Shown piece by piece: positions 10,929 through 51,422 of a DNA stretch of 56,992 nt. The translations under genes were made by a program, and so were the position numbers. Source of the stretch: Rhodospirillales bacterium (GTDB lineage Bacteria; Pseudomonadota; Alphaproteobacteria; UBA828); the NCBI GenBank assembly GCA_028818855.1, contig JAPPMY010000269.1, forward strand, positions 1-56,992, read 5' to 3'. Below the pieces are notes generated by a model. It was given only the letters and a program-made list of their open reading frames with translations, was not told the origin of the DNA and searched no databases. How positions within the stretch are numbered: position 1 is the first letter of the stretch; each line of letters begins with the position of its first letter.

Positions 10929-11186
10929 ATGGCCAAGACGGAAATGATCCGCGCCCGCGTCGAACCCGCCCTCAAGCACGAGGCCGAAGCTGTGTTCTCC
11001 CAGCTCGGGCTGTCGACGACCGAGGCGATCACCTTGTTCTACAAGCAGGTGACCCTGCGTCGTGGCCTGCCCTTCGCGGTGAGGCTCCCCAACGCGGAGA
11101 CGCGCGAGGCGCTGAAGCAGGCTCGTGAGAACGAGAAGCTCACCGAGTACGGCAGCGTGGAGGACCTGAAAGCCGCGCACAGCTGA
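10929..11186 (+). CDS. dinJ: RelB/DinJ-family antitoxin
   Basis: An 85-residue ribbon-helix-helix protein: the strand EMIRARVEPALKHEAEAVF and helix LGLSTTEAITLFYKQVTLR (residues about 4-45) are the DinJ DNA-binding domain, and the C-terminal part (NAETREALKQARENEKL) would wrap the toxin. Such antitoxins neutralise YafQ-type ribonucleases and repress their own operon. The toxin gene begins 3 bp after the stop codon. Strong Shine-Dalgarno GAGGAGAG upstream. Confidence 0.92.
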   Translation: MAKTEMIRARVEPALKHEAEAVFSQLGLSTTEAITLFYKQVTLRRGLPFAVRLPNAETREALKQARENEKLTEYGSVEDLKAAHS

Positions 11187-11189
11187 ACG

Positions 11190-11456
11190 ATGCGGCTGCT
11201 CACGACCGGACGGTTCGAGCGAGACCTGAGGCGATCGAGGAGGCGGGGCAAGAACCTCCACAAACTGTGGACCGTCGTCGAGCTGCTATTGCAGGAACAG
11301 CCGCTCGAGCCTCGTCACCGGGTCCACCGCTTGTCAGGCGATTGGGCGGGCTCTTGGGAGTGCCATATCGAAAGTGACTGGCTGCTGATCTGGCACCGCC
11401 GCGACGACACTCTGGTGCTCGTGAGAACCGGTACCCATTCCGACCTGTTTGACTGA
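11190..11456 (+). CDS. yafQ: YafQ-family mRNA interferase toxin
   Basis: An 88-residue RelE-superfamily toxin that would cleave mRNA on the ribosome. The YafQ active-site set is intact: histidine in HRVHRLSGDW (H46 or H43), His59 and Asp63 in CHIESDW, His83 and Phe87 in GTHSDLF. An arginine/lysine-rich N-terminus (RDLRRSRRRGK) fits ribosome contact. It is cotranscribed with dinJ. Because all catalytic residues are present, the module is probably active. Confidence 0.92.
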   Translation: MRLLTTGRFERDLRRSRRRGKNLHKLWTVVELLLQEQPLEPRHRVHRLSGDWAGSWECHIESDWLLIWHRRDDTLVLVRTGTHSDLFD

Positions 11457-11468
11457 CAGCCCTCCCCC

Positions 11469-12968: not shown

Positions 12969-13004
12969 CGTGGTCCCCCGATATCCGTCGGTTCGTTTCG
13001 TGGG

Positions 13005-14123
13005 TCAGGCGGCGAGCGCCTGCTCCGGCGCGAGATAGTCGTGGCCGAGGTCGAGCGCCACCGCCTCGTGCGTCACCTGCCCGCGGCAGACGTTGAGGCC
13101 CTGCATGAGGTGGGAATCGTCCCGCATGGCCCGCCGCCAGCCCTTGCCCGCCAGCGCGAGCACGAATGGCAGGGTTGCGTTGCTGAGGGCGAAGGTCGAG
13201 GTCCGCGCCACGGCGCCCGGCATGTTGGTCACGCAGTAGTGGAGGACGTTGGCCACCTTGTAGGTGGGCTCGGCGTGGGTGGTGGGCCGGCTGGTCTCGA
13301 AGCAGCCCCCCTGGTCGATCGCCACGTCGACCACCACGGCGTTGCGGCGCATGTCGTCCAGCATGTCGCGGCGCACGAGCTTGGGCGCGGCGGCGCCGAC
13401 CACGAGCACCGCGCCGATCACCAGGTCGGCGCTCTGCACCGCTCCTTCGATGGTGTGGACGGTCGAGAAGAGGGTCGTGGCGCTGGCCCCGAAAATCTCG
13501 TCGAGCTGGCGCAGGCGCGGGATCGAGCGGTCGATGATGGTGACCTGCGCCCCCATGCCGACGGCCATGCGCGCGGCATGGGTGCCGACCACGCCGCCGC
13601 CCAGGATCACGACGTCGGCGGGCGGCACGCCGGGGACGCCGCCGAGCAGGACGCCGCGCCCGCCCTGGTCCTTCTCGAGGCAATGGGCGCCGGCCTGGAT
13701 CGACATGCGGCCCGCGACCTCGCTCATCGGCGCGAGAAGCGGCAGGCCGCCGTGCGCGTCGGTCACGGTCTCGTAGGCGATGGCGATGCAGCCGGAGTCG
13801 ATCAGGGCGTTGGTCTGGTCCGCGTCGGCCGCGAGGTGGAGATAGGTGAAGAGCACCTGGTCGCGCCGCAGCATGGCGCACTCCGCCGGCTGGGGCTCCT
13901 TCACCTTCACGATCATCTCGGCCGTGCCGAAGATCTCAGTCACGTCGTCCACCACCTGGGCGCCCGCGCGCTCGTAATGCGCGTCGAGGAGCCCGATCTC
14001 CGTGCCGGCGTCCCTCTCGACCATAACCCGGTGGCCGTGCTGCACGAGCTCGCGCACGCCGGCGGGCGGAATGCCGACGCGGTACTCGTGAACCTTGGTT
14101 TCCTTGGGAACGCCGATCAGCAT
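13005..14123 (-). CDS. ald: Alanine dehydrogenase
   Basis: A 372-residue enzyme that interconverts L-alanine and pyruvate with NAD and ammonium. N-terminal [18 protein letters not shown], the substrate lysine region VKVKEPQ, the NAD motif [22 protein letters not shown] (in shorter form [10 protein letters not shown], residues about 173-182) and [13 protein letters not shown] are family signatures. Length matches. The Shine-Dalgarno GGAGAAG before ATG 14123 is good. It may run into mmsA. Confidence 0.95.
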
Positions 14124-14204
14124 GGCGGTTTCTTCTCCAGTAATCGGTTTAACCCGCTGTGGCCGGCTGCCCGGCCGGCGCAGCGCGGCCGCCCTTGCCG
14201 GCGG

Positions 14205-14951
14205 TCAGCTTTCGGCCGCTTCCGGCTGCAGCGCGTCCTGCGGACCGCTGCCCTCGCCGGACAGGCCGGGATCGGCAGGGCCTGGATCGGCCGGGCCGGA
14301 CTCCGCCGGCTCGGCTGCAGGCGCGGCCGGCTGCGCGTCGCCTGCCGGCTGCGGGGGCGTTGCGGCGGCTGCGCTGGCTTCAGCTGCAGCTGCCGCGGCG
14401 GCGGCTTTCTCTTCCCGTGCTGCCGCGCGTTCGGCCTTGGCGCGCGCCTTGCGCACCGCGTCGAGCAGCTCCGCCTCGGTGCAGATGCCGAGCAGGATCG
14501 GATCCTGCGGCGTGATGTTTTGCGTGTTCCAGTGCGTGCGCTCGCGCACCGCGGTGATGGTCGCCTTGGTGGTGCCGAGCAGCTTGCCGATCTGCGCGTC
14601 GCTCAGCTCGTCGTAGTTCTTGAGCAGCCAGGCGATGGCGTTGGGCCGGTCCTGCCGCTTGCTGACCGGCGTGTAGCGGGCGCGCCGGGTGCGCTGGGGC
14701 ACCTCCGCAGCCGGGCCAATGGCCTCCAGCCTGAGCGACGAATCCTGCTCGCAGCGCTGGAGCTCCTCGCGGGTGACCTGTCCGTTCGCGACCGGATCGA
14801 GGCCGCGGATGCCGATGGCGACCTCGCCGTCCGCAATGCCCTGCACTTCGAGGGGATGAAGCTCGCAGAACGCCGCGATCTGGTCGAACGTGAGCGTGGT
14901 GTTGTCGATCAGCCATACGGCCGTGGCCTTGGGCATCAGCAGTTCGGCCAT
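14205..14951 (-). CDS. trcR: Cell-cycle transcriptional regulator TrcR (DUF1013)
   Basis: A 248-residue protein starting MAELLMPKATAVWLIDNT, with FDQIAAFCELHPLEVQGIADGE and DAQIGKLLGTTKATITAVRE; these blocks are the conserved DUF1013 family restricted to alphaproteobacteria, named TrcR after the Caulobacter cell-cycle work. The C-terminal 90 residues are low-complexity alanine, proline and glutamate, unlike the compact form, and are probably disordered. The start at ATG 14951 is preferred over 14996 because family members begin near this point. A good sigma70-like promoter lies upstream. Confidence 0.85.
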   Translation of the reverse strand: MAELLMPKATAVWLIDNTTLTFDQIAAFCELHPLEVQGIADGEVAIGIRGLDPVANGQVTREELQRCEQDSSLRLEAIGPAAEVPQRTRRARYTPVSKRQDRPNAIAWLLKNYDELSDAQIGKLLGTTKATITAVRERTHWNTQNITPQDPILLGICTEAELLDAVRKARAKAERAAAREEKAAAAAAAAEASAAAATPPQPAGDAQPAAPAAEPAESGPADPGPADPGLSGEGSGPQDALQPEAAES

Positions 14952-15031
14952 CTTGTTCGTTCCTTCCCCTGCCGCCCGTGCGCAGGCACGCCGCAACCGG
15001 CGGGTCCGCTTCCGGGCCGCGTGAAACGGTC

Positions 15032-15060
15032 GGTATATCCCCTAGATGTAGGGAGCGCAA
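15032..15060 (-). promoter_or_regulatory. Putative sigma70-type promoter of trcR
   Basis: On the minus strand TTGCGC (15060-15055) and TATACC (15037-15032) are separated by 17 bp. The spacer contains the palindrome CCCTA-gatg-TAGGG (15040-15053), a candidate operator. Confidence 0.5.
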
Positions 15061-38100: not shown

Positions 38101-39819
38101 CTACCAGCCCAGCGCGCGGCTCATGCGCCGGGGGTCGGCGGCGCCTTCGATCTCGCCCGTCCCGAGGTCCTTGCGGACCGCGCAGACGCCGCCTGTCCAG
38201 TGCGACCAGTCATCCAGCCGCTCGACACGGTGACCGCGCGCAGCCAGCGCATCGCCGGTGGCATCGTCGAAGCGCCCTTCGACGGTGACGAGGCCGGGGC
38301 GCGCATCATGGGGCGCGAAGGAATCCGGGTGACTGTGGGTGACGAGGCGTGGGGCCTCCACCGCATCCTGCAAGTCCAGGCCGAAGGCCAGGTGAGCGAG
38401 CAGCGTCTGCAGGTTCGCCTGGATCTGCGTGTCGCCGCCGGGAGTGCCGAAGGGCATGACCCAGCGGCCGGGCGAGAGGGCGAGGCAGGGATTGGGCGTG
38501 AGCCGGGGCCGCTTGCCCGGCGCGAGGCAGGAGGGGTGCCCCGGCACCGCCCACGACTGCGCCCCGCGCGAGGAGACCGCGAGCCCGGTCCCCGGCACCA
38601 CCGGCGTGTCCCAGCTCGTGTCCGAGGGCGTCGAGCAGAGCGCGTTCCCCTCCCCGTCGACGACGCAGACGATGGACGTATCGGGCGGCGGCTTCAATGG
38701 CGCCTGGCATGCGGCGGGCGGCGGGACGTATGCCTCGTGGCCTGCGATACGGCCGGGACGCGGCATTCCGGGTGACGCGCTCCGGGGGTCGATGGCCTTG
38801 CTCCGCTCCGTTGCGTAGGTGTCGCCGATGAGCGTATCGAGGGGAACGTCCACGAAGTCCGGGTCGCCGAGATAGCCCTCCCGGTCGGCGAACACGAGCT
38901 TGAGCGTCTCCGCGACGGTATGGAGGTAGTCGGCCGTGCCGTGCCCCTGCCGGCCTGCGCCCGCCGCCTCGGCGATGGCGAGCGCCTGCAGGAGGAACGG
39001 CCCCTGGCACCAGGCGCCGCAGGTGTGGACCTCCACCGCCCCGCCATTGAAGCGGAAGCGCCGGGAGACGGAGGGCACGACCTGACAGCGGAAGTCTTCC
39101 AGATCCTCTGCCGCCAGCAGCCCGTCGTTCTCCCTCTGGTGCGCGATGATTTGTCTGGCGATGTCGCCCCGGTAGAACGCGTGGCGCGCCGCCGCGAGGC
39201 CGGCCAGGCGGTCGCCGCCGGCCGCGCGCTCCTCGTCGCAGAGGAATTGCAGGGTCCGGCCGAGATCGGCCTGGACCAGCCGCGTGCCGGGCGCCGGCAC
39301 GGCGCCGCCCGGCATCCAGATCGCGACGTTCTCGGGCCAGTGGCGGAAGTCGTCGGCGTGAGAGCGCACGTAGTCGAGCATGACCGGGTGGCGGGGGAAG
39401 CCGCGCGACGCGTAGCGCACAGCCCGCGCCGCCACGTCGCGGAAGGTCATCGTGCCCCAGCGCTCCAGCGCCTGGATGCAGGCGTCCGGGGCGGCGGGCA
39501 CGACGGTGCGTCGCACGCCGAGCGGAATGGTTCCCCCGTGGCGCTCGATGAAGGCGTCCGCGTCGAGCGCCCGCGGCCAGCCGCCGACGCCCGCGATGGT
39601 GACGACCTCGCCGGTCCCGGCGAGGCGGACGATCATCGGCGCGACCCCGGCCACGCTCACCTGGTCGCTGTAGACGACGCCGAGGGCGAGGATCGCGGCG
39701 ACGCCCGCGTCGATGGCGTTGCCGCCGTTCTCCAGCGCCTCGAACGCGGCCAGTGCCGCAAGCTCGTGGCCTGCGCTGGCGACGTAGTGGTGGCCTCGGG
39801 TGACGGGAACGACGGACAT
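38101..39819 (-). CDS. Gamma-glutamyltransferase-family protein
   Basis: A 572-residue Ntn-hydrolase of the gamma-glutamyltranspeptidase family. The likely autocleavage nucleophile is Thr381 in PPDTSIVCVVDGEGNAL. ENGGNAIDAGVAAILALGVV near the N-terminus and MPFGTPGGDTQIQANLQ near the C-terminus are family blocks. There is no signal peptide, so unlike the periplasmic Ggt it appears cytoplasmic. Members cleave gamma-glutamyl bonds (glutathione conjugates) or act on acylated substrates. The nearby glutathione-dependent gene set makes processing of glutathione conjugates an attractive role, by inference. Its stop lies 3 bp outside the inverted-repeat element. Confidence 0.85.
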   Translation of the reverse strand: MSVVPVTRGHHYVASAGHELAALAAFEALENGGNAIDAGVAAILALGVVYSDQVSVAGVAPMIVRLAGTGEVVTIAGVGGWPRALDADAFIERHGGTIPLGVRRTVVPAAPDACIQALERWGTMTFRDVAARAVRYASRGFPRHPVMLDYVRSHADDFRHWPENVAIWMPGGAVPAPGTRLVQADLGRTLQFLCDEERAAGGDRLAGLAAARHAFYRGDIARQIIAHQRENDGLLAAEDLEDFRCQVVPSVSRRFRFNGGAVEVHTCGAWCQGPFLLQALAIAEAAGAGRQGHGTADYLHTVAETLKLVFADREGYLGDPDFVDVPLDTLIGDTYATERSKAIDPRSASPGMPRPGRIAGHEAYVPPPAACQAPLKPPPDTSIVCVVDGEGNALCSTPSDTSWDTPVVPGTGLAVSSRGAQSWAVPGHPSCLAPGKRPRLTPNPCLALSPGRWVMPFGTPGGDTQIQANLQTLLAHLAFGLDLQDAVEAPRLVTHSHPDSFAPHDARPGLVTVEGRFDDATGDALAARGHRVERLDDWSHWTGGVCAVRKDLGTGEIEGAADPRRMSRALGW

Positions 39820-41850: not shown

Positions 41851-43026
41851 CTACGCGCTGCGCACCAGCACGAGAGGCCCGTTTGGCCGATCGGGATCGA
41901 GCGTTATGCGGTGCGTCGGGTCGTGAAGCACGCAGGGCCGCGCAAACCATCCCATGCGGTAGGTTCTCTCGCTCGGGCTCGGCGCGGTGCAGATCGGCCT
42001 GGCGCCAGCCGCCAGACGGCCCTTCTTCAAGTGCTCGTAGGCGGTGCGGTACTTCTCGGCGATGAAGGGTGCGATGGTGTGCGAGCCGCGCAACCCTTCG
42101 GCGTACCGGCCGGCGCCGAACGCCACCGCGATCGCTTCCGAGAACGCGTCGAGGCGGGAAGCGGCGACGTCGACCACGAGCCCGCCGTAGCCCGCACGCG
42201 CCGCGTGGCAGAATGCGGCGTCGGCGATGGCGCGCACGGCGGGCTCGAGCGCATCGCCCGCGTCGATGCTGCGATGGACGATGCTCCGCAGATGGCGATG
42301 CACGGGAATGCCGCTGCGCTCCGGCGAGAGCGCGGCCATGGCGGCCGTCTCGCGGCTCCCCTGAAAATCCAGCCGCTTCAGGTCGGGCTGGCGCGCCAGC
42401 GCCATTCCGGCGTCGGTCCCTGAGCCCTGAACCAGATTGAAGACGCCGCCGGGTGCGCCGGCACGGTTCAGCGCATCGGCCAGAAACACCAGCGAGAGCG
42501 GCGCCTGGATCGAGGGATGGACGACCGCCGTGTTGCCCGCGGCGAGGTCCGGGGCCAGGGTCCGGATGCAGAGGGTGAGAGGGCTGCTCCAGGAGAGAAT
42601 CTGACCGATCACGCCGGGCGCACTGTCGTCCTCCGGCCGGCCCCCGCCCGCCACTTGCGCCCGGGTCTCGCGGATCGCCGACAGGATGTCGTCCCGCGCG
42701 GCCTGCGCCGGCAGCCCCGTGTCCCGGCAGGCGAGCGCTGCGACACGGTCGATCCGCTCGGCGAGGTGCGCCAGCGCGCCGTCGACCACCGCCGCACGCC
42801 GGGCGCCGGAGAGCGCCGACCAGGGGACGATGGCGGCGCGGGCCGCCGTCATCGCCTGGGCGACATCGCGGTGGGTGGAGAGCGGGACTGCAGCGATGAC
42901 GGTGCTGTCGGCGGGATCGTAGATGTCGAAGGAATAGCCCTCGCGCGTGAACCGCCACGCGCCGCCGATGAAGTTGCGCTCTGATTGGTCCTCCCAGGAA
43001 AGGTCGGCGGCGGCGCTCTCACTCAT
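41851..43026 (-). CDS. Truncated aldehyde dehydrogenase homologue without catalytic residues (probable pseudoenzyme)
   Basis: A 391-residue ALDH-superfamily protein. The fold is clear: NFIGGAWRF, YDPADSTVIAAVPLS, LAPDLAAGNTAVVHPS, NRAGAPGGVFNLVQGSG and DFQGSRETAAMA. Yet the active-site residues are replaced: WNxP reads WSSP (146-149), the cofactor lysine is His170, the ELGG motif reads RHLR (244-247), and no GQxC motif exists (Cys273 is in FCHAAR). It ends at RPNGPLVLVRS, the place of EIFGPV in active enzymes, so the last 90 or so residues are absent, and sequence after the stop does not encode them in any frame I could read. It is the last gene of the monooxygenase operon, 142 bp after tmoE (gap 43027-43168, nothing recognised). 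A structural or regulatory role is inferred. Confidence 0.85.
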   Translation of the reverse strand: MSESAAADLSWEDQSERNFIGGAWRFTREGYSFDIYDPADSTVIAAVPLSTHRDVAQAMTAARAAIVPWSALSGARRAAVVDGALAHLAERIDRVAALACRDTGLPAQAARDDILSAIRETRAQVAGGGRPEDDSAPGVIGQILSWSSPLTLCIRTLAPDLAAGNTAVVHPSIQAPLSLVFLADALNRAGAPGGVFNLVQGSGTDAGMALARQPDLKRLDFQGSRETAAMAALSPERSGIPVHRHLRSIVHRSIDAGDALEPAVRAIADAAFCHAARAGYGGLVVDVAASRLDAFSEAIAVAFGAGRYAEGLRGSHTIAPFIAEKYRTAYEHLKKGRLAAGARPICTAPSPSERTYRMGWFARPCVLHDPTHRITLDPDRPNGPLVLVRSA

Positions 43027-43168
43027 GGGCCGAGACTACCTCAGAGCGAGCGGCCGCACGGGCGCAATCCGCCCCGGTCAGCCCGCCGATGGGGTCTCCG
43101 AGGCGCAATCGGTAACGGTGGGCGGAAGGCCGGCGACCGGGCGCGAGGCGCGGCCGCCGGGAGCGCCC

Positions 43169-44191
43169 TCAGGCATCGCCGCTGAGCCCCGCCTGCCACT
43201 TCAGCTCGGCCCAGCGCGCGAGCACGTCGTCGGCGATGCCCTGGGCCGAGAGGCCGTCGACGTGCGCCGCGATCATCTCCGAGCCGGACGCGATGATCGC
43301 CTCCGCGTGGCCGTTCCACTTGGCGGCGAAATCGCGCAGGACGTTCCGGTTGGCCTCGTCCTCGGCGATGATGAACTTCACGGCTGCGGCGGTCCAGCGA
43401 TCGTGCCGCTCGCAGTCCTGGTAGAGGTTCTCCAGCAGCAGCGCGTCCAGCTCGTCGCCGGCCTGGCGCGCCGCGCGCGAGAGCTGGTTGACGAAGAGGC
43501 TGTCGCAGACCGGGCGGACGACGAGGTTGAACCCGACCAGCGCCTCGTCCCACTCGTAGACGACGAGCAGCTTCTCCATGGCCTCGCGGACGGGCTGCCA
43601 GGCGGGCGCATCCTGCCAGGCCGCGCGCTCGCTGCTGCCGAAGCCGTGCGAGGGGTGCTCCGTGCCGAGCTGGCGGGTGCGGTAGGCGATGCGCTGCACG
43701 CGGCGAAGCTGGTCGGCGACCTGGAACGACGCGCAATTCGCGACATAGGAGGACGCGGCGATCTGCTGGATGTAGGCCGAGAGCATCTGCTGCACGTGCC
43801 CCAGATAGCGGCACGGCGTCATCGCCGTGAGCAGAAGCTGCAGGCACTCGTTGGAGAGGCGCCCGTCGCTCGTGTCTTGGGCGGTGTAGGAGGTGAGAAG
43901 CGTGTCGATGTAGGCTTCCTGCACGTCCTGCATCTTGACGTAGCTGTGGTAGGTGACCCGGTCGGGGTCGCGGAAGCCCTCCCAGCTCGCGACCTTGATG
44001 GCGATGTCGTCCCGGTACTTCTTGAGCCACACGTTGCCGTGGACGTCCGGCCCCATTTCGAGCGGCGTTTCGCCCGTCATGTGGTTGAGGCCGTGGGTGA
44101 CGATCTCGTAGTCGCTGGGCTTGCCGGTCACGTCGCCGAGCGCGCTCCAGGTCTTCTTCCGCGAACGCCTGCGTGCTGTGGATTCGGCCAT
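43169..44191 (-). CDS. tmoE: Soluble diiron monooxygenase hydroxylase beta subunit (TmoE/IsoE-like)
   Basis: A 340-residue ferritin-like helical protein without metal ligands, the beta subunit of toluene/alkene monooxygenase hydroxylases. TWSALGDVTGKPSDYEIVTHGLNH, DPDRVTYHSYVKMQDVQEAYID, LSAYIQQIAASSYVANCASFQVADQLRRVQRIAYRTRQL (in parts) and WQPVREAMEKLLVVYEWDEALVGFNLVVRP are typical. It forms the (alpha-beta-gamma)2 hydroxylase with TmoA and TmoB. It lies 36 bp after tmoD. In classical operons a reductase gene (tmoF) follows; here the ALDH-like gene does. Confidence 0.92.
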   Translation of the reverse strand: MAESTARRRSRKKTWSALGDVTGKPSDYEIVTHGLNHMTGETPLEMGPDVHGNVWLKKYRDDIAIKVASWEGFRDPDRVTYHSYVKMQDVQEAYIDTLLTSYTAQDTSDGRLSNECLQLLLTAMTPCRYLGHVQQMLSAYIQQIAASSYVANCASFQVADQLRRVQRIAYRTRQLGTEHPSHGFGSSERAAWQDAPAWQPVREAMEKLLVVYEWDEALVGFNLVVRPVCDSLFVNQLSRAARQAGDELDALLLENLYQDCERHDRWTAAAVKFIIAEDEANRNVLRDFAAKWNGHAEAIIASGSEMIAAHVDGLSAQGIADDVLARWAELKWQAGLSGDA

Positions 44192-44227
44192 GATGTCCCC
44201 CAGTGTCTCTCTTGCTGCCTGGAACCG

Positions 44228-44533
44228 TCAGTTGACGTAGAACCAGCGCATCTGCTCCGTGCTCGATTGCATCCGGCCCTTGAAGGACGGCATCTCGATC
44301 TCGAGCATCGCCATGTTGAAGTCACGACCCAGGTGCTTCTCGATCGATGCCCTGGTCACGACGCAATCGCGCTCTGCGTGGATGCGGACGTAGTCCTCGC
44401 GCTCGAAGACCATCACCTCGCGCCCCGGATTGTCCTCGATCGCCGCGTCGATCACCGCATCGGCAAGCTCGCCCGTCCGAACGACCGGGCCAACCAGATT
44501 GTCATCCATTTCCGTGAATTCGTCGCCACTCAT
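44228..44533 (-). CDS. tmoD: Monooxygenase effector/coupling protein (TmoD/MmoB/DmpM family)
   Basis: A 101-residue cofactor-free regulatory protein. DDNLVGPVVRTGELADAVIDAAIEDNPGREV and RIHAERDCVVTRASIEKHLGRDF are the family core. It binds the hydroxylase near the diiron site and tunes substrate access and electron transfer. Length agrees with TmoD (about 103). It is 21 bp downstream of the Rieske ferredoxin gene. Confidence 0.93.
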   Translation of the reverse strand: MSGDEFTEMDDNLVGPVVRTGELADAVIDAAIEDNPGREVMVFEREDYVRIHAERDCVVTRASIEKHLGRDFNMAMLEIEMPSFKGRMQSSTEQMRWFYVN

Positions 44534-44554
44534 GGTCCTCGTTCCTTTCTCGCG

Positions 44555-44932
44555 CTATCCGGCGTCGGGCTCGGCGCCCACGAGAACGCGGCCGCCCTCC
44601 ACCTTCACGGGAAACGTCCGCAAGCACTCGTTCGCCGGGTTGATCCCCTGGCCGCCGTCGGCCTGGAACTCCCAGAGATGGGCGCGGCAGATGATGACGC
44701 CGTCCTCGGTCAGCTCGCCGTCCGCCAGCGACGTGCTCTGGTGCGGGCAGATGGCGTCGTAGGCGAAGTAGCGGCCGCCGTAGCGGACCAGCAGCACCTC
44801 GTGCTCGCCCACGTCGAAGGCGTCCATGTCGCCGTCCCAGAGCTCGTCCTCTGCGCAAAGCTCGACGTACTCGACGCCGTCGGACGCCGCTGGTGCGGAC
44901 GCTGCTACTCCTTCCATCGAATGTCGAACCAT
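44555..44932 (-). CDS. tmoC: Rieske-type ferredoxin of the diiron monooxygenase (TmoC-like)
   Basis: A 125-residue Rieske [2Fe-2S] protein. The cluster ligands are C62-P-H64 and C82-R-A-H85 (ICPHQST and CRAHLWEF). It transfers electrons from an NADH reductase to the hydroxylase. The gene overlaps the tmoB end; starts at ATG 44932 or ATG 44917 are both possible and neither has a good Shine-Dalgarno, so translation is probably coupled to tmoB. Confidence 0.92.
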   Translation of the reverse strand: MVRHSMEGVAASAPAASDGVEYVELCAEDELWDGDMDAFDVGEHEVLLVRYGGRYFAYDAICPHQSTSLADGELTEDGVIICRAHLWEFQADGGQGINPANECLRTFPVKVEGGRVLVGAEPDAG

Positions 44933-45171
44933 TGCAGCGGCAGGATCTCGGTCGTCGCCATCAGCTCCTCGAGCTTCTGGTCGCCCGGCAGGACCTCGCC
45001 GTTAAACAGGACCTCGAAGCCGGTGGCGTCGGGATTGTCCGGCAGGCGCCGGCCCACGCTGTGCACCGCCGCCTTCTCTGCGATCTGGTCGAAGGTGTCC
45101 TCGGTGTCGACCGCGACCAGGTGCGGAATGTGGTCGCCGACGACGCGGCCGGTTATCGGGAAGAGAGCCAT
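44905..45171 (-). CDS. tmoB: Monooxygenase hydroxylase gamma subunit (TmoB-like)
   Basis: An 88-residue ubiquitin-like subunit: MALFPITGRVVGDHIPHLVAV, EKAAVHSVGRRLPD and EVLFNGEVLPGDQKLEEL match TmoB (about 85 residues). It stabilises the hydroxylase. It lies 29 bp after tmoA and overlaps tmoC. Confidence 0.92.
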   Translation of the reverse strand: MALFPITGRVVGDHIPHLVAVDTEDTFDQIAEKAAVHSVGRRLPDNPDATGFEVLFNGEVLPGDQKLEELMATTEILPLQWFDIRWKE

Positions 45172-45200
45172 GTCGTTACCTCCGCGCTGGGATGCCGGGG

Positions 45201-46694
45201 CTATTCGGCAGCCGCCGGCATCTCCTTGTAGTCCTCGGCCCAGGTGTAGCCGTAGACGTCATCGCCCATCACCTCCGGCGTGATGCTCATGTACTCCAGC
45301 CCGCCCGCGAGGTTCATCGGCTGGATCATGCCGGCGATGAAGCGGTCGACCACGTTCATGTGGCCGGCGTAGCGCTCCGGCTCCAGCTCGAAGATCCACT
45401 TCGACATCTCGCTGTCGAAGTGATAGACGCGGCCCTTGTAGACGACCTGGTGGCACTCGAGGTGATGGCGGTCGATGCCGGAGCCGAGAGGAAGCTGCGT
45501 GATGTTGCAGAGCGACGGCAGGGTCTCCGGGAAGGCCTTCTCCATGTTGCCGTCGTTGATGTTCTTGATGATCGTGTCCCAGAGATAGCCCCAGCTGTCC
45601 TCCCAGGTGGGATACTTCTCGTTGAGCCACTTGCGCTCGGCCTTGGAGACGCCCGCATTGGGCTTCCAGAACAGCGTCGGCCGCCAGAACCAGGTGCCGA
45701 TGTGCATGGAGTGGTGCCCGTGGTCGAGCGCGACCTCGAACTGCGGCCAGTACCAGGGCTTCTCCAGCCCGTAGTCGCGCAGGATCCGCTCGTGGTGCTT
45801 GACGATCCACTCGAGCATGAACTCCTTGAACGACATCTTCCGCTTGGCGAGCGGCGTGTAGTAGTCCATCGACGTGCCGGTGAGCGTCTGGAACAGGCGG
45901 AAGGTGCGCCAGAAGGAGACGTCCAGAATCTGCTGGGCCCGCTTGGGATCGTGCTTGATGACGACGTCCAGCGTGGGGAAGCCGAGCTGGGCATGGCGCG
46001 ATTCGTCCGTCTGGATGCTCGACAGCAGGTTCGAGAAGTTGACGTCGCCCGCCTCCATCGCATCCGACGCCATGGCGATGAACTGGATGTTGGTGAAGCC
46101 GTGCTCGACCGTGAGCGAGGTCGCGAGCGCCGCTTCCACGCAGTCCGCGTTCATCATCACGTCGTCAAAGAAGTTGCGGACGGCGATGATGCCCCACTCG
46201 TTGGTGTGGAACCCCTTCTGGCACCAGTCGAAGCGCGGATCCTCGTTCAGCAGGTCGTGGCTGAAGCGCATGTCGAGCTGGGCGTGCCGGATCTCGTCGA
46301 GCATCCCGAAGGCGCCCATGCTGCGCCAGCGGGGGCTCGGGGCGAAGCGGCTGAAGCGGCTCTGCATGGTCACCGCCATCTGCTCGACCATGCAGGTCGC
46401 GCCCATGTGCAGGTGCGAAGACGCCTGGTGCCCTTCGTCGAGCTTGTTGTAGAGCTTGGCCCGCTGCATGGCCTCGCGGACCGCGCTGACGCCGGCTTCC
46501 TTCTCGCGCTGCACCATCACGTATTCGCGGTAGGAGACGCGGTAGGGCTCGTCCCAGTCCTCCCAGGCGTCGAGCGGGATGCCCTTGGCGCCGACCCACT
46601 CCTCGGGGAACGCCTCCTCGCGATCGACGTAGCTCAGCTCCCAGTCGACGTCGCGGGCGATGTCGTACCAGTCATCACGGTTCAGTAACGCCAT
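45201..46694 (-). CDS. tmoA: Soluble diiron monooxygenase hydroxylase alpha subunit (TmoA/IsoA-like)
   Basis: The 497-residue catalytic subunit. The six diiron ligands sit at exactly the positions of toluene-4-monooxygenase: Glu104 (MVEQM), Glu134 and His137 (DEIRHAQL), Glu197 (TVEHGF), Glu231 and His234 (DESRHAQLG); Thr201 of the oxygen-activating site is also kept. Such enzymes hydroxylate aromatics or epoxidise alkenes. The presence of glutathione transferase genes directly upstream points to an epoxide product, as with isoprene monooxygenase. The gap to the upstream GST gene is 96 bp. Confidence 0.95.
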   Translation of the reverse strand: MALLNRDDWYDIARDVDWELSYVDREEAFPEEWVGAKGIPLDAWEDWDEPYRVSYREYVMVQREKEAGVSAVREAMQRAKLYNKLDEGHQASSHLHMGATCMVEQMAVTMQSRFSRFAPSPRWRSMGAFGMLDEIRHAQLDMRFSHDLLNEDPRFDWCQKGFHTNEWGIIAVRNFFDDVMMNADCVEAALATSLTVEHGFTNIQFIAMASDAMEAGDVNFSNLLSSIQTDESRHAQLGFPTLDVVIKHDPKRAQQILDVSFWRTFRLFQTLTGTSMDYYTPLAKRKMSFKEFMLEWIVKHHERILRDYGLEKPWYWPQFEVALDHGHHSMHIGTWFWRPTLFWKPNAGVSKAERKWLNEKYPTWEDSWGYLWDTIIKNINDGNMEKAFPETLPSLCNITQLPLGSGIDRHHLECHQVVYKGRVYHFDSEMSKWIFELEPERYAGHMNVVDRFIAGMIQPMNLAGGLEYMSITPEVMGDDVYGYTWAEDYKEMPAAAE

Positions 46695-46729
46695 CGTTCA
46701 TGTCCCCCATACTTGCCGGCAGACCCGGC

Positions 46730-46745
46730 CGTTGCATCGGCAACG
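46730..46745 (-). other. Hairpin upstream of tmoA
   Basis: CGTTGC (46730-46735), loop ATCG, GCAACG (46740-46745), in the 96-bp gap between the GST gene and tmoA. It may protect the tmoA 5' end or attenuate transcription; no T-run follows. Confidence 0.4.
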
Positions 46746-46790
46746 CGGCGCACGGACCGGATTTCTTGCAGCCCGCGCTGGCCGCAGAGA

Positions 46791-47504
46791 TCAGATGTCG
46801 AAACGCGCCTTCATCCGGTCGAGGTAGCCGGTCAGGTTCGGCTTAGCCGCAGCGTAGTCCCTGGTGTCGAAGTTGAAGGGCGTATCGATGATGTGACGCA
46901 GGATCGAGGCGATGCCTGCGTCGATCGAGCGGGGCTCGGCACCCATCAGGAAGCCGTCGCCGCCGATCCGGGCGTCGATCGCGTCGATGTCCTCGCGGGC
47001 GCGCCCGTAGATCACGTCGCCCGACATGCGGCCCCAGCCGCCCTCCATGAACTCCATCACGATCCGGTGGCGGAAGTCGTCGGCGAAGGCGCGGAGCGGC
47101 GGCGGGATGTCGTCGGTGCCGGCGATGACCCGCAGGTAGATCTCGAAGTTCGGGGTCTCGCGCCAGCGCGGCTGGATGACGGCGGTCCAGTAGAGATGCT
47201 CGTCGATCAGGCGGTTCCACGCGTGCATGTCCGACTTCTCGGCGGCGGAGGCGCTCCCATCCAGCATGTCGCCGTACTTGCCCTTCAGGTAGTTGATGAT
47301 GGCCGTGGAATCCGCGACCTTCTCCTCGCCATCCTCGATCATCGGCAGCTTGCCGTGCGGCGTGTCCTGGTCGAGCCTCGTCAGATCCTGGTTGACGAAC
47401 TCGTGCTCGATCCCCGCCATCTTCATGTAGTAGATGGCCTTGGTGACGTAGGGGCTGATGCACGGCACCGTCCAGCCTGGCAGATACCCGTAGACCTTGA
47501 TCAT
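46791..47504 (-). CDS. Glutathione S-transferase (IsoI-like)
   Basis: A 237-residue GST. The N-terminal thioredoxin-like domain begins MIKVYGYLPGWTVPCISPYV and contains the glutathione-binding cis-Pro block GKLPMIEDG and DSTAIINYL (residues about 52-73); the helical domain follows. The opening and the length resemble the GST of isoprene clusters (IsoI), which conjugates epoxyisoprene to glutathione. That similarity is from memory of the family, not from an alignment. It lies directly upstream of tmoA and 64 bp after the SDR gene, in one apparent operon. Confidence 0.88.
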   Translation of the reverse strand: MIKVYGYLPGWTVPCISPYVTKAIYYMKMAGIEHEFVNQDLTRLDQDTPHGKLPMIEDGEEKVADSTAIINYLKGKYGDMLDGSASAAEKSDMHAWNRLIDEHLYWTAVIQPRWRETPNFEIYLRVIAGTDDIPPPLRAFADDFRHRIVMEFMEGGWGRMSGDVIYGRAREDIDAIDARIGGDGFLMGAEPRSIDAGIASILRHIIDTPFNFDTRDYAAAKPNLTGYLDRMKARFDI

Positions 47505-47568
47505 TGTTTTCCCTCCGCTGTGCGCGTCTGTTCGTCAGGCATTCCAACCGATGCCGTAGCCTATACCG

Positions 47569-48249
47569 TCACCACGCCAACTCTTCGCCGTTGGCATGCC
47601 AGAACCGGCCCGATGTCTCGAGGCTGAGCGCGTCCATCCGCCGGATCAGCCCTTCGGCCGCCTCGTCCGGCGTTATGTAGTCGAAGTCCCCCGGGAAATC
47701 CCTGGTGAGGTCGGTCGCCACCATGCCGGGATGCAGCGCGGCCACGGCGATGCCCCGCTTCGACAGGTCGTGGTGCAGGTTGAGGGTCACCATGTTGGCG
47801 CCCGCCTTGGAGGCACGGTAGGCGTACATCTGCCCGGAGCCGTTGTCCGAGAGCGAGCCGACGCGGCTTGTGATCACGCCCACCTTGGCGTCCGTCGCGA
47901 GGTGGGGAAGCGCCGCCTCGATCGCGCGCAAGGGGCCGATGGTGTTGATCTCGATCTGCCGGCGGACGTCGTCGTAGTCGATCCTGCCCAGCTCGTCGAG
48001 GCCGAGCACGCCGGCCACGTGGATGAGGCAGTCGATCTTTTCGCCCCGTGCCGCCAGGGCCCCGGCCATGGCAGCCACCGCCGCGCCGGACGTGACGTCC
48101 ACGTTGGGGATCACGGCTATGCCCGAGCCCTGGTAGGCCTCGCCCGACCCCAGGCAGACTGACACCACCGTCTCGCCCCGCGCGGCCAACTGCCGGCAGA
48201 GCGAGAGGCCGATCCCGCGGTCCGCGCCGATGATCAGACAGGTCGTCAT
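47569..48249 (-). CDS. Short-chain dehydrogenase (IsoH-like)
   Basis: A 226-residue SDR. Cofactor motif IIGADRGIGLSL (residues 6-17), catalytic Ser128 (ITSRVG), Tyr144 and Lys148 (YRASKAG) are intact. IsoH of isoprene degraders is an SDR of this size that oxidises the glutathione-alcohol conjugate to the acid; the position beside a GST and a diiron monooxygenase supports the same role. It is the first gene of the minus-strand operon, divergent from lysR, with the shared operator in the promoter region. Confidence 0.87.
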   Translation of the reverse strand: MTTCLIIGADRGIGLSLCRQLAARGETVVSVCLGSGEAYQGSGIAVIPNVDVTSGAAVAAMAGALAARGEKIDCLIHVAGVLGLDELGRIDYDDVRRQIEINTIGPLRAIEAALPHLATDAKVGVITSRVGSLSDNGSGQMYAYRASKAGANMVTLNLHHDLSKRGIAVAALHPGMVATDLTRDFPGDFDYITPDEAAEGLIRRMDALSLETSGRFWHANGEELAW

Positions 48250-48340
48250 TCAGCCGCTCACCCCCCGCTCCGGCCGATACCGAATCTCGCCTTACCCTAG
48301 GCACCGCCGGATATCGCCGCTATAGCAACTTCCCAAATTG

Positions 48341-48363
48341 ATTGTTCCGTTGGGCCGAACAAT
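48341..48363. promoter_or_regulatory. LysR-type operator, site 1 (ATTGT-N13-ACAAT)
   Basis: ATTGT (48341-48345), 13 bp, ACAAT (48359-48363); the inner bases extend the symmetry to ATTGTTC/GAACAAT. It overlaps the lysR start codon (48362-48364), which suits autorepression, and lies about 90 bp upstream of the divergent SDR gene, where it would cover the -35 of a TATAGC (-10, 48324-48319) promoter. A near-identical site is at 50608-50630. Confidence 0.7.
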
Positions 48364-49270
48364 GGATCTGAAGCATCTCTACCGGATCAGCGTGTTTCAG
48401 AAGGTCGTCGAGACCGGCAACTTCACCCGTGCGGCGCACGCGCTCAATCTCAGCAAGTCCGTCGTCAGCCAGCACGTGAGCGACCTCGAGCGCGAGCTGA
48501 ACGTGCGCCTGCTGAACCGCTCGACCCGCTCGGTCGCGATCACGCACGAGGGCCACACGCTCGCCGAGGCGGCCGAGCGGATGATCGATATCGTCGGCAC
48601 CGCCGTGGAGCGGCTGGAGACGCAGCAGGACCTGCCGTCTGGCATCATCCGGATGACGGCGTCCCAGAACCTCGCCGTCGTCTACCTCACCGGCGCGGTC
48701 AAGCGCTTCCGCGAGCGCCACCCGAAGGTCGACATCGAGCTGGACGTGCAGGACAGCATCACCAACATCATCGAGGGCGGCTACGACATCGCCTTCCGCA
48801 TCGGCTGGCTGAAGTCGACCGAGCTTCACGCGGTCAAGATCTGCGACTTCGAAATGATCCCCTGCGCGTCGCCGGCCTACCTCAAGGCGTTCGGCCCGAT
48901 CCGCTCGCCGCTGGATCTCACGCAGAAGCCCTGGATCACCCTCACCGTGATGCCGGACTTCGACCGGCTGACGCTCACCAATGCCGAGCACGACGATGCC
49001 AGCGTCAAGGTCGACCCCTCGATCCGGACGAACTCGGGCATGACCGCCAAGCAGTTCGTTCTCGACGGGGCGGGCGCCGGGCTCCTGCCGGACTACGCCA
49101 TCCGCGGCGAGATCGAGAGCGGGCGGATCGTCCGCCTGCTGCCGGGCTGGCGGCACCGGCCGGGCGCCATCGCCGCGACCTACGTGCATCGGCGCCGCAT
49201 GCCGCCCAGGCTGCGCGCCTTTCTCGACTTCCTCAAGGAGGACGCGAGAGTCGCCTTCAACCTGGGCTGA
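48362..49270 (+). CDS. LysR-family transcriptional regulator
   Basis: A 302-residue LTTR. The winged helix-turn-helix is in FQKVVETGNFTRAAHALNLS and KSVVSQHVSDLERELNVRLLNRSTR (residues about 10-55), followed by the effector-binding domain (GIIRMTASQNLAVVYL, GGYDIAFRIGWLKS). ATG 48362 fits the family start; no Shine-Dalgarno precedes it, so a leaderless message is possible. It is divergent from the GST-monooxygenase operon and convergent with the CoA-transferase gene. It is the likely regulator of both through the paired operators. Confidence 0.92.
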   Translation: MDLKHLYRISVFQKVVETGNFTRAAHALNLSKSVVSQHVSDLERELNVRLLNRSTRSVAITHEGHTLAEAAERMIDIVGTAVERLETQQDLPSGIIRMTASQNLAVVYLTGAVKRFRERHPKVDIELDVQDSITNIIEGGYDIAFRIGWLKSTELHAVKICDFEMIPCASPAYLKAFGPIRSPLDLTQKPWITLTVMPDFDRLTLTNAEHDDASVKVDPSIRTNSGMTAKQFVLDGAGAGLLPDYAIRGEIESGRIVRLLPGWRHRPGAIAATYVHRRRMPPRLRAFLDFLKEDARVAFNLG

Positions 49271-49297
49271 AGGGACGTCTCCGGCCGTCACGGGGCC

Positions 49298-50527
49298 CTA
49301 CTCGGCCGCCGCCGAATAGGCGCGCAGGGCGGGATCGTTCTCGCCGCCGATGATGCCCCTCTTGTGCAGCGCGACGATGTCCGCTTCGCTCAGGCCGAGC
49401 GCGGAGAGGACTTCGGTGCAATGCTCGCCGAGCTGCGGGGCGCCAGCGCGATGGGTTGCCGGCGAGCCCTGGAAGCGGGCGGCATTGCGGGTCTGGCGGA
49501 GCCGGCCTGCGGCGGGATGCTCGGTCTCGACCAGAACCTCGCTCGCGACCACCTGCGGATGCTCGACCACGCCGTTCCGCGTGAGCGCCGGCGCGCAGGG
49601 CACGCCGCAGGCTTCGAGGATACGCATCCATTCGTCGGTCGTGCGCTCCAGCAGCACCTGCTGGGTCAGCTCGAGCCGCTCGTCGACGTGTTCGTCGCGT
49701 GCCGAGGGCGTGGCAAAGCGTTCGTCCTCGAGCCACTCCTCCCGCTCCAGCGCCTTGCAGAGGCCGTGCCATTCGCGGTCGGACATGACGGCCACGGTCA
49801 TGTAGCCGTCCTTCGTCTCGTAGATCAGGTCGATGAAGCTCGCCGCCGCCTGGTTGGAGACCTCGGCGTCGGGATAGGTCTGGGCACCGTAGTCCGAAGC
49901 CCAGAGGAACTGGAGGATCGCATCCAGCATGGAGAGGCGGACGTGCTGGCCCCGGCCGGTGCGCTCCCGCCGGAAGAGTGCGGCGCCGATGGCCTGCGAG
50001 GCGGTCATGGCGGAGAACTTGTCCGGGAGAACGGTGCGGACCAGCCGCGGGCGCTCCTCGTCCGACCCCGCCTGGATCGTGGTGAGCCCGGAGAGCGCCT
50101 GGATCACGGGGTCGTAGACCGGCTTGTGGACCCAGGGCCCCTTCTCGCCGAAGCCGGAGAGCGACATGTAGACGATGTTCGGATTGACCCCGGCGACATC
50201 CTCGTAGCCGACGCCCAGCCTCTCGACCACGCCAGGGCGGAAGTTCTGGACGAAGACGTCGGCCGTCTCGGCGATCCTGAGCAGGAGGTCGCGGCCTTCC
50301 GGCTTCTTGAGATCCAGCGTGACCGAGCGCTTGTTGCGGTTGATGTTCAGGAACATCGACGACATGCCGCCGCGCTGGTTGCCGAGCGAGCGGACGTGAT
50401 CGCCCTTGCCCGGCACCTCGACCTTGATCACGTCGGCGCCCTGGTCGCCCAGAATCGAGGTCGCCCAGGGGCCGGACAGCATGGTGGTCAGGTCGACGAT
50501 CTTCACGCCCTCGAACGGTCCGCTCAT
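49298..50527 (-). CDS. Family III CoA-transferase (IsoG-like)
   Basis: A 409-residue CaiB/BaiF-type enzyme. FEGVKIVDLTTMLSGPWAT, LGDQGADVIKVEVPGKGD, VFVQNFRPGVVERLG and the catalytic aspartate in PVYDPVIQALSG are present. In isoprene clusters IsoG is a family III CoA-transferase/racemase-like protein proposed to form or handle the CoA thioester of the glutathionyl acid. The start is ATG 50527, 7 bp after GGGAGG; an ATG 6 bp upstream is too close to it. It is divergent from the second GST gene across a shared operator. Confidence 0.88.
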   Translation of the reverse strand: MSGPFEGVKIVDLTTMLSGPWATSILGDQGADVIKVEVPGKGDHVRSLGNQRGGMSSMFLNINRNKRSVTLDLKKPEGRDLLLRIAETADVFVQNFRPGVVERLGVGYEDVAGVNPNIVYMSLSGFGEKGPWVHKPVYDPVIQALSGLTTIQAGSDEERPRLVRTVLPDKFSAMTASQAIGAALFRRERTGRGQHVRLSMLDAILQFLWASDYGAQTYPDAEVSNQAAASFIDLIYETKDGYMTVAVMSDREWHGLCKALEREEWLEDERFATPSARDEHVDERLELTQQVLLERTTDEWMRILEACGVPCAPALTRNGVVEHPQVVASEVLVETEHPAAGRLRQTRNAARFQGSPATHRAGAPQLGEHCTEVLSALGLSEADIVALHKRGIIGGENDPALRAYSAAAE

Positions 50528-50607
50528 CCGCATCCCTCCCGCCGAGATTGCCGGCAGCCGACGATAGGTGCTCCGTCTGCAGGCGCATACTGCCGTTTCC
50601 CGAACCG

Positions 50608-50630
50608 ATTGTCTGAATATTTCGAACAAT
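50608..50630. promoter_or_regulatory. LysR-type operator, site 2 (ATTGT-N13-ACAAT)
   Basis: ATTGT (50608-50612), 13 bp, ACAAT (50626-50630); extended symmetry CCGATTGT/ACAATCGG. Like site 1 it has CGA before ACAAT and GATTGT on the left. It lies in the gap between the divergent CoA-transferase and GST genes, about 80 bp from each start. Confidence 0.7.
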
Positions 50631-50708
50631 CGGAGTGCGCCGGCCATGACATCGGTGAGAATTCCAGGCTACGTTCCCACCGACGCCGCCTGCCGAGGAT
50701 CCAGGCCC

Positions 50709-51422
50709 ATGATCGACGCCCACTACTGGCCGACGCCCAACGGATGGAAGATCTCCATCGCGCTCGAGGAGATGGACCTCGACTACCGGATCGTGCCGGT
50801 CAACATCTATCGGGGCGAGCAGTACGAGCCCGACTTCCTCGCCATAAGCCCGAACAACCGGATGCCGGCGATCGTGGATCACGACCCGGCGGACGGCGGC
50901 GAGCCTGTCGCTGTGTTCGAGTCCGGCGCGATCCTGATCTATCTGGCGGAAAAGACCGGCCGTTTCCTGCCGACCGACCTGCGCGGGCGCAAGACCGTGC
51001 TCGAATGGCTCTCGTGGCAGCTCGGCGGGCTCGGCCCGATGATCGGCCAGGCCGGCCACTTCAAGCTCTACGCGCCTGAGCAGATTCCCTACGCCATCGA
51101 GCGCTACCGCGCAGAGATGCTCCGCCTCTACGGCGTGCTCGACCGCCGGCTCGAGGGGCGCGAGTACATCGCCGGCGACTACTCCATCGCGGACATGGCC
51201 TGCTGGCCCTGGGTCATCACCTACAAGGGGCAGAAGGTGGACCTCGACGCGTTCCCCCACGTCAAGCGCTGGTACAAGGCGCTGCAGCAGCGCCCGGCGC
51301 TCCGGCGCGGCTACGATGCGGGCAAGGAGCTCGGCAAGCTCAAGACGGAGTGGGACGAGGAAACCAAGCGGAACCTCCTGCCCGGATACCGGCCGGAGGG
51401 CGCAGGCGCAAGCGCCGGCTGA
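50709..51422 (+). CDS. Glutathione S-transferase (YghU/YfcG-like), second copy
   Basis: A 237-residue GST beginning MIDAHYWPTPNGWKISIALEE, typical of nu-class/YghU-type proteins, with SPNNRMPAIVD, FESGAILIYLAEKTGRFLP and the helical-domain block YIAGDYSIADMACWPWV. These enzymes often reduce disulfides of glutathione and may remove glutathione from conjugates. ATG 50646 upstream has the better Shine-Dalgarno (GGAG, 9 bp) and would add 21 residues; the family start favours 50709. In isoprene clusters a second GST (IsoJ) is also found. Confidence 0.88.
   Translation: MIDAHYWPTPNGWKISIALEEMDLDYRIVPVNIYRGEQYEPDFLAISPNNRMPAIVDHDPADGGEPVAVFESGAILIYLAEKTGRFLPTDLRGRKTVLEWLSWQLGGLGPMIGQAGHFKLYAPEQIPYAIERYRAEMLRLYGVLDRRLEGREYIAGDYSIADMACWPWVITYKGQKVDLDAFPHVKRWYKALQQRPALRRGYDAGKELGKLKTEWDEETKRNLLPGYRPEGAGASAG

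What the first reader, a model, noticed from the sequence alone, without database searches (positions are those of the whole stretch)
41851..51422. Isoprene-type, glutathione-dependent alkene oxidation cluster in an alphaproteobacterium
A TmoABCDE-type diiron monooxygenase with all metal ligands at canonical positions lies behind a GST and an SDR in one direction, and a LysR regulator, a family III CoA-transferase and a second GST adjoin. Monooxygenase, GST, SDR and CoA-transferase together are the inventory of the isoprene pathway (IsoABCDE, IsoI, IsoH, IsoG, IsoJ). Gene order differs: SDR-GST-ABCDE-ALDH-like on one strand and CoA-transferase/GST divergently. This suggests a distinct lineage of the pathway, perhaps for another alkene. 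A gamma-glutamyltransferase-like gene 2-3 kb away could process the glutathione conjugate.
Basis: partly seen in the sequence, partly recalled or inferred. Interest (0 to 1): 0.85.

Follow-up and report, generated by a model that had tools for sequence, protein, structure and literature searches.

The report
Isoprene-type alkene oxidation gene cluster
An uncultured alphaproteobacterium carries an apparently horizontally acquired gene set that probably oxidises isoprene gas and captures the toxic product with glutathione; its oxygenase groups with the well-known propene oxygenase of Xanthobacter, which uses a different capture chemistry, so it bridges two pathways usually treated as separate.

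Summary
IsoG-, IsoH- and IsoI-type genes (SDR and GST pass NCBI's IsoH and IsoI cut-offs) sit with a TmoABCDE-type diiron monooxygenase whose alpha subunit belongs to the IsoA/XamoA clade, not the toluene clade. In the alpha trees the coenzyme-M-linked propene enzyme XamoA nests inside the window's otherwise glutathione-linked group. At inspected pocket positions the window follows isoprene monooxygenases, not XamoA. Over-cut-off IsoI and IsoA-type alpha occur in the same 2 of 385 alphaproteobacterial genomes; the unit looks horizontally acquired (alpha 88%, RpoB 63% identical between the two). It is not a standard iso cluster: isoF is absent (decayed remnant in one relative; candidate reductase on another contig), a true aldH is absent, the second GST is YfcG-like and outside the conserved block, and the 'ALDH' lacks catalytic Cys and Glu. 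That dead ALDH-like protein also follows the monooxygenase in Py2 and ten other loci, but not in Comamonadaceae iso loci. Best reading: a glutathione-dependent isoprene (or close diene) oxidation unit, a new variant of a known kind. Substrate and activity are untested.

The parts
49298..50533 (-). isoG-type family III CoA-transferase, 411 aa
   Evidence: PF02515 382 bits; 82% to L008, 70% to L009, 66-70% to L010, L011, L012, L023; tree
48362..49270 (+). LysR-type regulator, divergent from the SDR
   Evidence: PF00126/PF03466; 78% to L008 LysR, 39-41% to LysR genes in L010, L011, L012, L023
47569..48249 (-). isoH-type SDR (glutathionyl-alcohol dehydrogenase)
   Evidence: NF049951 351.4 bits, cut-off 350; 83% L008, 64% WS11
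46791..47504 (-). isoI-type glutathione S-transferase
   Evidence: NF049950 335.3 bits, cut-off 300; 81% L008, 63% WS11
45201..46694 (-). hydroxylase alpha subunit of the IsoA/XamoA clade
   Evidence: PF02332; 88% L008, 79% L009, 76% XamoA and WS11 IsoA; trees; pocket positions
44905..45171 (-). gamma subunit (TmoB/IsoB-type)
   Evidence: PF06234
44555..44917 (-). Rieske ferredoxin (IsoC-type); longer frame starts at 44932
   Evidence: PF00355; start by codon score
44228..44533 (-). effector/coupling protein (IsoD-type)
   Evidence: PF02406
43169..44191 (-). hydroxylase beta subunit (IsoE-type)
   Evidence: PF02332; beta tree
41851..43026 (-). aldehyde-dehydrogenase-fold protein without catalytic Cys/Glu (aldH2-like, putative pseudoenzyme)
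   Evidence: 12 of 12 proteins of this kind lack the Asn169, Glu268 and Cys302 equivalents; 16 of 16 comparison ALDHs keep them; fold model pLDDT 82.7, ALDH fold
50709..51422 (+). YfcG-like (Nu-class) GST beside the unit; probably not IsoJ
   Evidence: outside the block conserved with relatives
38101..39819 (-). gamma-glutamyltransferase-family gene, not shown to belong

Best explanation
An apparently horizontally acquired unit (41851 to about 50549) for glutathione-dependent oxidation of isoprene or a very similar small branched diene. The five-gene monooxygenase would epoxidise the alkene, the IsoI-type GST open the epoxide with glutathione, the IsoH-type SDR oxidise the conjugate's alcohol to the acid, and the IsoG-type CoA-transferase activate it for beta-oxidation-like assimilation. 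Electrons would come from a reductase coded elsewhere (candidate on contig C69), because isoF is absent here. The catalytically dead ALDH-like protein most likely serves the monooxygenase itself (assembly, stability or regulation) rather than oxidising an aldehyde. Shown: gene content, orthology, clade, pocket positions, absence of isoF, loss of ALDH catalytic residues, co-occurrence. Inferred: substrate, reaction order, in-trans reductase, role of the dead ALDH.
For: IsoH and IsoI pass curated cut-offs. Alpha and beta trees place it in the IsoA/XamoA clade. Of 30 inspected alpha positions the window equals WS11 IsoA at 28 and Py2 XamoA equals it at 27; XamoA departs at 100 (I), 196 (L) and 266 (Y), while the window keeps T100 and V196 like all 11 Comamonadaceae and actinobacterial rows inspected (position 266 varies among those). 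IsoI over cut-off and IsoA-type alpha occur in the same 2 of 385 genomes. A glutathione synthetase family match is in the genome and ComA is not; EaCoMT matches are 31-32%, 45% over one 78-residue stretch. IsoI and IsoH steps are established for Variovorax WS11 (PMC10057887, part 1 of the text and passages).
Against: isoF and a true aldH are missing beside the unit and isoJ is not shown, although isoJ and aldH are essential in WS11 (PMC9804861 passages). Alpha is only 74-76% identical to the Comamonadaceae sequences, outside the 81-100% reported among known Gram-negative IsoA (PMC12917321 results). IsoH passes its cut-off by only 1.4 bits. IsoMO-expressing cells have a broad substrate range (PMC10667655, abstract in the listing) and Py2 oxidises isoprene too (PMC6849523 passages), so pocket positions cannot fix the substrate. 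The window has two private changes at inspected positions (A99, M208; M208 shared with L008). The MAG is rated 6.9% contaminated.
Confidence: 0.66

Rival explanations
1. Same chemistry for another small alkene (propene, butadiene, a volatile terpenoid or host-derived alkene), with glutathione in place of coenzyme M.
For: The alpha subunit's nearest characterised relative in the tree is XamoA, a propene enzyme; B, C, D are also closer to Xamo (67/65/66%) than to WS11 Iso (50/47/51%).
Against: Positions 100 and 196 are as in IsoA, not XamoA. IsoH and IsoI are closer to isoprene homologues (64 and 63% to WS11) than to the styrene ones (53 and 40%).
Confidence: 0.2
2. A decaying or non-functional remnant: isoF already lost, isoJ and aldH absent.
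For: No isoF beside the unit; relative L008 has only a broken remnant of it.
Against: The remaining genes are open frames. The related bin RHO1_bin_88 (L034) keeps B-E and the ALDH-like gene at 98-72% identity. A 48-50% identical reductase exists in the genome.
Confidence: 0.1
3. An aromatic-ring hydroxylase of the toluene monooxygenase type beside unrelated GST/SDR genes.
For: TmoABCDE-type subunit set; 46-52% identical to toluene-monooxygenase-type alphas on plasmids (hits H2-H15).
Against: The 20-row IsoA/XamoA clade is split from the other 36 rows, ToMO among them, at 100/100; alpha differs from ToMO at 100, 103, 192, 196; IsoG/H/I context.
Confidence: 0.04

Closest known systems
Isoprene degradation clusters isoGHIJ-aldH-isoABCDEF (Variovorax WS11, Ramlibacter WS9, Rhodococcus AD45)
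   Same: IsoG, IsoH, IsoI orthologues; ABCDE subunit set; inspected pocket positions; a LysR gene beside the cluster as in L010-L012 and L023
   Different: No isoF and no true aldH beside it, isoJ not shown; alpha 74-76% to Comamonadaceae sequences; LysR gene lies between isoG and isoH; B, C, D closer to XAMO; has the dead ALDH-like gene, which the Comamonadaceae loci lack
Alkene (propene) monooxygenase XamoABCDEF of Xanthobacter autotrophicus Py2 with the coenzyme M pathway
   Same: Same alpha clade (100/99), closest B, C, D outside the MAGs, and a short (387 aa) dead ALDH-like gene after the monooxygenase genes
   Different: Py2 has XamoF, EaCoMT and CoM biosynthesis genes beside it; the window has IsoG/H/I and its genome has no ComA match; I100/L196 in Py2
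Styrene glutathione pathway StyGHIJ of Gordonia rubripertincta CWB2
   Same: CoA-transferase, SDR, GST in the same order
   Different: Lower identity (60, 53, 40%); no diiron monooxygenase annotated in the 18.7 kb stretch seen
aldh2 of Rhodococcus AD45 / ibcG of Mycolicibacterium ELW1
   Same: ALDH-like gene immediately downstream of a group 2 alkene monooxygenase; its retention across AD45, Py2 and isobutylene degraders is noted in PMC13188929 (passages)
   Different: The passages I saw describe it as an aldehyde dehydrogenase; here proteins in that position are shown to lack the catalytic residues. The AD45 and ELW1 sequences themselves were not aligned here

Membership tests
Isoprene degradation (iso) cluster | IsoABCDEF six-gene monooxygenase | tested here: not met
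   A-E present; F absent beside them: three F proteins against the gap give no significant match in the window; a 48-50% XamoF-like reductase lies on contig C69
Isoprene degradation (iso) cluster | IsoI epoxide glutathione transferase | tested here: met
   NF049950 335.3 bits against cut-off 300; again over cut-off
Isoprene degradation (iso) cluster | IsoH dehydrogenase | tested here: met
   NF049951 351.4 against 350, a narrow pass
Isoprene degradation (iso) cluster | IsoG CoA-transferase | tested here: met
   82% to L008, 66-70% to the Comamonadaceae loci; proteobacterial clade 100/99
Isoprene degradation (iso) cluster | IsoJ second GST | tested here: inconclusive
   GST at 50709 lies outside the IsoJ/StyJ clade (100/99) but AU p 0.105 does not exclude it; best solved-structure match is YfcG
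Isoprene degradation (iso) cluster | functional AldH | tested here: not met
   the only ALDH-like protein in the unit lacks the Cys302, Glu268 and Asn169 equivalents
Isoprene degradation (iso) cluster | IsoA-type substrate pocket | tested here: met
   28 of 30 inspected positions equal WS11 IsoA, differing at 99 and 208; which of these line the pocket is recalled
Isoprene degradation (iso) cluster | growth on isoprene | not testable with these tools
   uncultured MAG
XAMO/coenzyme M alkene pathway (Py2) | alpha subunit in the XamoA clade | tested here: met
   clade of L009, Py2, window, L008: 100/99, 99/99
XAMO/coenzyme M alkene pathway (Py2) | coenzyme M biosynthesis and EaCoMT | tested here: not met
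   no PF02679 (ComA) match in own genome; EaCoMT matches only 31-32%, 45% over 78 residues
Toluene/aromatic monooxygenase (TMO) | alpha within the clade of ToMO | tested here: not met
   split from ToMO and relatives at 100/100

The most novel reading that the evidence does not exclude
The textbook coenzyme-M-linked propene monooxygenase of Xanthobacter Py2 descends from a glutathione-linked isoprene-type system like this one: the epoxide-processing module was exchanged (IsoG/H/I for the CoM genes) and the pocket changed (T to I at 100, V to L at 196). One accessory protein kept across the exchange is a catalytically dead aldehyde-dehydrogenase-fold protein, which would then be an assembly, stability or regulatory partner of many, though not all, alkene monooxygenases of this group rather than a pathway enzyme.
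Probability: 0.35. Interest if true: 0.72.

Novelty: new variant of a known kind. Interest (0 to 1): 0.6.

Why it matters
Isoprene is among the most abundant biogenic volatile gases and its bacterial sinks are poorly mapped. This lineage lies outside the identity range reported for known Gram-negative IsoA and includes bins whose names suggest coral-reef sponges, a setting for which the listings of my searches showed no isoprene-degradation report. It links two alkene pathways usually treated as separate, suggests that glutathione and coenzyme M modules are exchangeable behind one monooxygenase, and turns an unexplained 'aldehyde dehydrogenase' gene of alkene degraders into a testable question about a dead enzyme serving the monooxygenase.

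Tried and rejected
Second GST as IsoJ: tree and conserved-block boundary speak against it, AU does not exclude it. Gamma-glutamyltransferase as part of the pathway: no match of 35% or more in the 20 loci compared (L007-L023, L029, L030, L034). CoM pathway in this genome: no ComA match. Aromatic monooxygenase: rejected by the tree. Unit as a genus-wide trait: not supported; none of the 5 other genus genomes rated at least 92% complete has an alpha above 44%. L034, from a genome 95% identical in RpoB, does carry the unit, but its contig cuts the alpha gene, so a whole-alpha search of its genome could miss it. Dead ALDH as an obligatory part of iso-type monooxygenases: not supported; no such protein was found in the DNA held for L010, L011, L012, L014 and L023, and L012 has an ordinary ALDH downstream. 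Plasmid search with an actinobacterial ALDH-like protein gave mostly ordinary-looking ALDHs; Py2 was the only member I recognised among 25 rows shown of 1534 records. Paper search combining pseudoenzyme, aldehyde dehydrogenase, monooxygenase and isoprene: 0 papers.
Full report
Anatomy. The window is contig C24 of a 4.78 Mb MAG (96.8% complete, 6.9% contamination). Minus strand: CoA-transferase 49298-50533, SDR 47569-48249, GST 46791-47504, alpha 45201-46694, gamma 44905-45171, Rieske 44555-44917, effector 44228-44533, beta 43169-44191, ALDH-like 41851-43026. LysR 48362-49270 lies on the other strand between CoA-transferase and SDR. GC falls to 0.64-0.65 over 44-48 kb, against 0.66-0.73 in the other 2-kb bins.

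Extent of the unit. Against related contigs, DNA similarity starts at the CoA-transferase (window 50549, with L008) and stops at the ALDH-like stop codon (window 41851, with L034). In the 20 loci compared (L007-L023, L029, L030, L034), window genes outside 41851-50549 have no match of 35% or more over half their length, except the second GST (IsoJ genes, 45-48%) and two genes with one generic match each (35 and 39%). So the second GST and the gamma-glutamyltransferase are not part of what is inherited together.

Orthology. The GST scores 335.3 bits on the IsoI model (cut-off 300) and the SDR 351.4 on the IsoH model (cut-off 350). The CoA-transferase is 82% identical to that of L008 and 66-70% to those of four Comamonadaceae loci, of which L010 is the Variovorax WS11 iso plasmid. 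The IsoG, IsoH and IsoI trees pair window and L008 (100/99, 100/99, 98/98). The IsoI of L009 is divergent (47%) and unplaced, which weakens a simple story of one co-inherited module.

Monooxygenase. Alpha is 88% identical to L008 (MAG CAR2_bin_5), 79% to L009 (MAG PL25a_bin.159), and 76% to XamoA of Py2 and to WS11 IsoA. In a 56-row tree the clade (L009,(Py2,(window,L008))) has 100/99, and Py2 with window and L008 100/95. In a 28-row tree the values are 99/99 and 99/96. AU tests reject window, L008 and L009 held together without Py2 (p 0.018) and Py2 outside all IsoA-like rows (p 0.012); these groups were named after the first tree was seen, so the p values are optimistic. The beta tree recovers the same clade plus L034 (95/94) without resolving Py2 inside it. 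B, C and D are also closer to Xamo (67/65/66%) than to WS11 (50/47/51%).

Pocket. I compared 30 alpha positions in 23 rows (ToMO numbering). The iron ligands are kept. WS11 IsoA is matched at 30 by L009, 29 by L008, 28 by the window (differing at 99 and 208) and 27 by Py2 (differing at 100, 196, 266). T100 and V196 are in all 11 Comamonadaceae and actinobacterial rows inspected. That 100, 103, 192 and 196 line the active site is recalled, not computed. This favours isoprene over propene, but Py2 can oxidise isoprene without growing on it (PMC6849523 passages), so it is an inference.

What is missing. There is no isoF. L034 also goes directly from beta to the ALDH-like gene, L008 has a broken remnant of the C-terminal part of isoF, and L009 and Py2 have an isoF-type gene there. 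A reductase 48-50% identical to XamoF sits on contig C69 beside an alpha/beta-hydrolase gene; it could serve this and the genome's other diiron monooxygenases (alphas on C18 and C138). isoJ and aldH, essential in WS11 (PMC9804861 passages), are not shown in the unit. L008 has an ALDH with the LELGG and GQVC motifs upstream; the window's unit has none.

Dead ALDH. I aligned 12 ALDH-like proteins encoded after the monooxygenase genes (window, L008, L034, L009, Py2, seven actinobacterial loci) with 16 other ALDHs picked from the same and related loci. The Asn169, Glu268 and Cys302 equivalents are missing in 12 of 12 and kept in 16 of 16; Lys192 is kept in 8 of 12, so nucleotide binding is not excluded (residue names recalled from human ALDH2). 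A model of the window protein (pLDDT 82.7, 11 sequences) is an ALDH fold (TMq 0.79-0.84 in the 50 PDB rows shown). Of the 18 scan loci of the IsoA/XamoA clade, 9 show such a gene (L008, L009, L013, L016, L017, L018, L020, L029, L030). Nine do not: L010, L011, L012, L014, L023 with DNA in hand downstream, and L015, L019, L021, L022 where the contig ends soon after the monooxygenase genes. PMC13188929 (passages) noted that AD45, Py2 and isobutylene degraders all retain an ALDH gene in this place and treats it as an aldehyde dehydrogenase. PMC4676930 (passages) places AD45 aldh2 downstream of isoABCDEF, reports two isoprene-induced ALDH genes and leaves their functions open. Because it accompanies glutathione- and CoM-linked systems here (and a hydrolase-linked one in that paper), a role with the monooxygenase is the simplest inference; its absence from Comamonadaceae loci shows that it is not universal.

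Distribution and transfer. Of 385 alphaproteobacterial genomes drawn, 2 have alpha at E at most 1e-180 and 2 have IsoI over cut-off: the same two, own and G086, whose match coordinates equal those of L008. A further 39 of 385 have an IsoI-like GST at E at most 1e-30 below the cut-off. In the 21 family genomes searched, the other alphas listed at E at most 1e-100 are 41-47% identical. RpoB identity to the window's genome is 63% (L008's genome), 68% (L009's) and 95% (L034's, 786 residues), against alpha 88% for L008, so transfer between distant lineages is likely. L034, from a separate related bin, argues against the unit being mere contamination. The scan returned 27 loci; 18 fall in the IsoA/XamoA clade (L008-L023, L029, L030), of which 12 show an IsoI gene in the DNA held and 6 do not (L014, L015, L017, L019, L020, L022), some of them truncated.

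Origin. L008 and L034 carry bin names CAR2 and RHO1; PMC8163846 (passages) describes MAGs from Carteriospongia foliascens and Rhopaloeides odorabile. That these bins come from that study is an inference from the names. Its main text has no occurrence of 'isoprene'. Searches for isoprene monooxygenase with sponge (1 paper), isoprene with sponge, symbiont, monooxygenase and MAG terms (2 papers) and isoprene degradation with coral, marine and metagenome terms (20 of 159 shown) listed nothing on isoprene degradation in sponges; isoprene degraders from estuaries and other marine sites are known (PMC6849523, PMC7657509 passages). The source of the window itself is unknown.

Conclusion. It works like the isoprene pathway but is not filed as a full iso cluster, because isoF and a functional aldH were tested and not met. 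It is a new variant that joins the XAMO-lineage enzyme to the glutathione module.

Noticed in passing
L038 (own C110) 1315-1995, L035 (own C18) 350-1870, L088-L090: A second diiron monooxygenase type, seen in own genome and G014-G017, G019, has an IsoH-like SDR nearby (50-53% to the window SDR; in own genome alpha and SDR are on different contigs). In L088 also hydantoinase A/B genes, a RidA-like protein, an NMT1-type ABC transporter and a polysaccharide deacetylase; no Rieske gene was called beside it in L088-L090. IsoH-like SDR at E<=1e-45 in 7 of 22 genomes.
   Followed up: partly
L036 (own C138) and L072-L087: Other diiron monooxygenase alphas 41-47% identical to the window alpha form their own clade with own C138; 16 of 21 family genomes (own included) have an alpha at E<=1e-100, some with two side by side.
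   Followed up: partly
L142 (G048:C7) 8416-15054: Two IsoI-like GSTs (230 and 210 bits, below the 300 cut-off), one beside an IsoH-like SDR (46%), with no match to the window monooxygenase proteins in 20 kb: possibly another glutathione-dependent epoxide pathway.
   Followed up: partly
L008:13530-13920: Decayed C-terminal remnant of isoF between the beta subunit and the ALDH-like gene.
   Followed up: yes
L034:1-3437 against window 45331-41851: Protein identity falls along the operon: B 98, C 96, D 92, E 88, ALDH-like 72%.
   Followed up: no
L014, L015: Gammaproteobacterial and Acetobacteraceae MAG alphas of the IsoA-like clade (70%, 69%) without IsoG/H/I in the DNA held; L014 has other residues at inspected positions (L100, C176, V192).
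   Followed up: no
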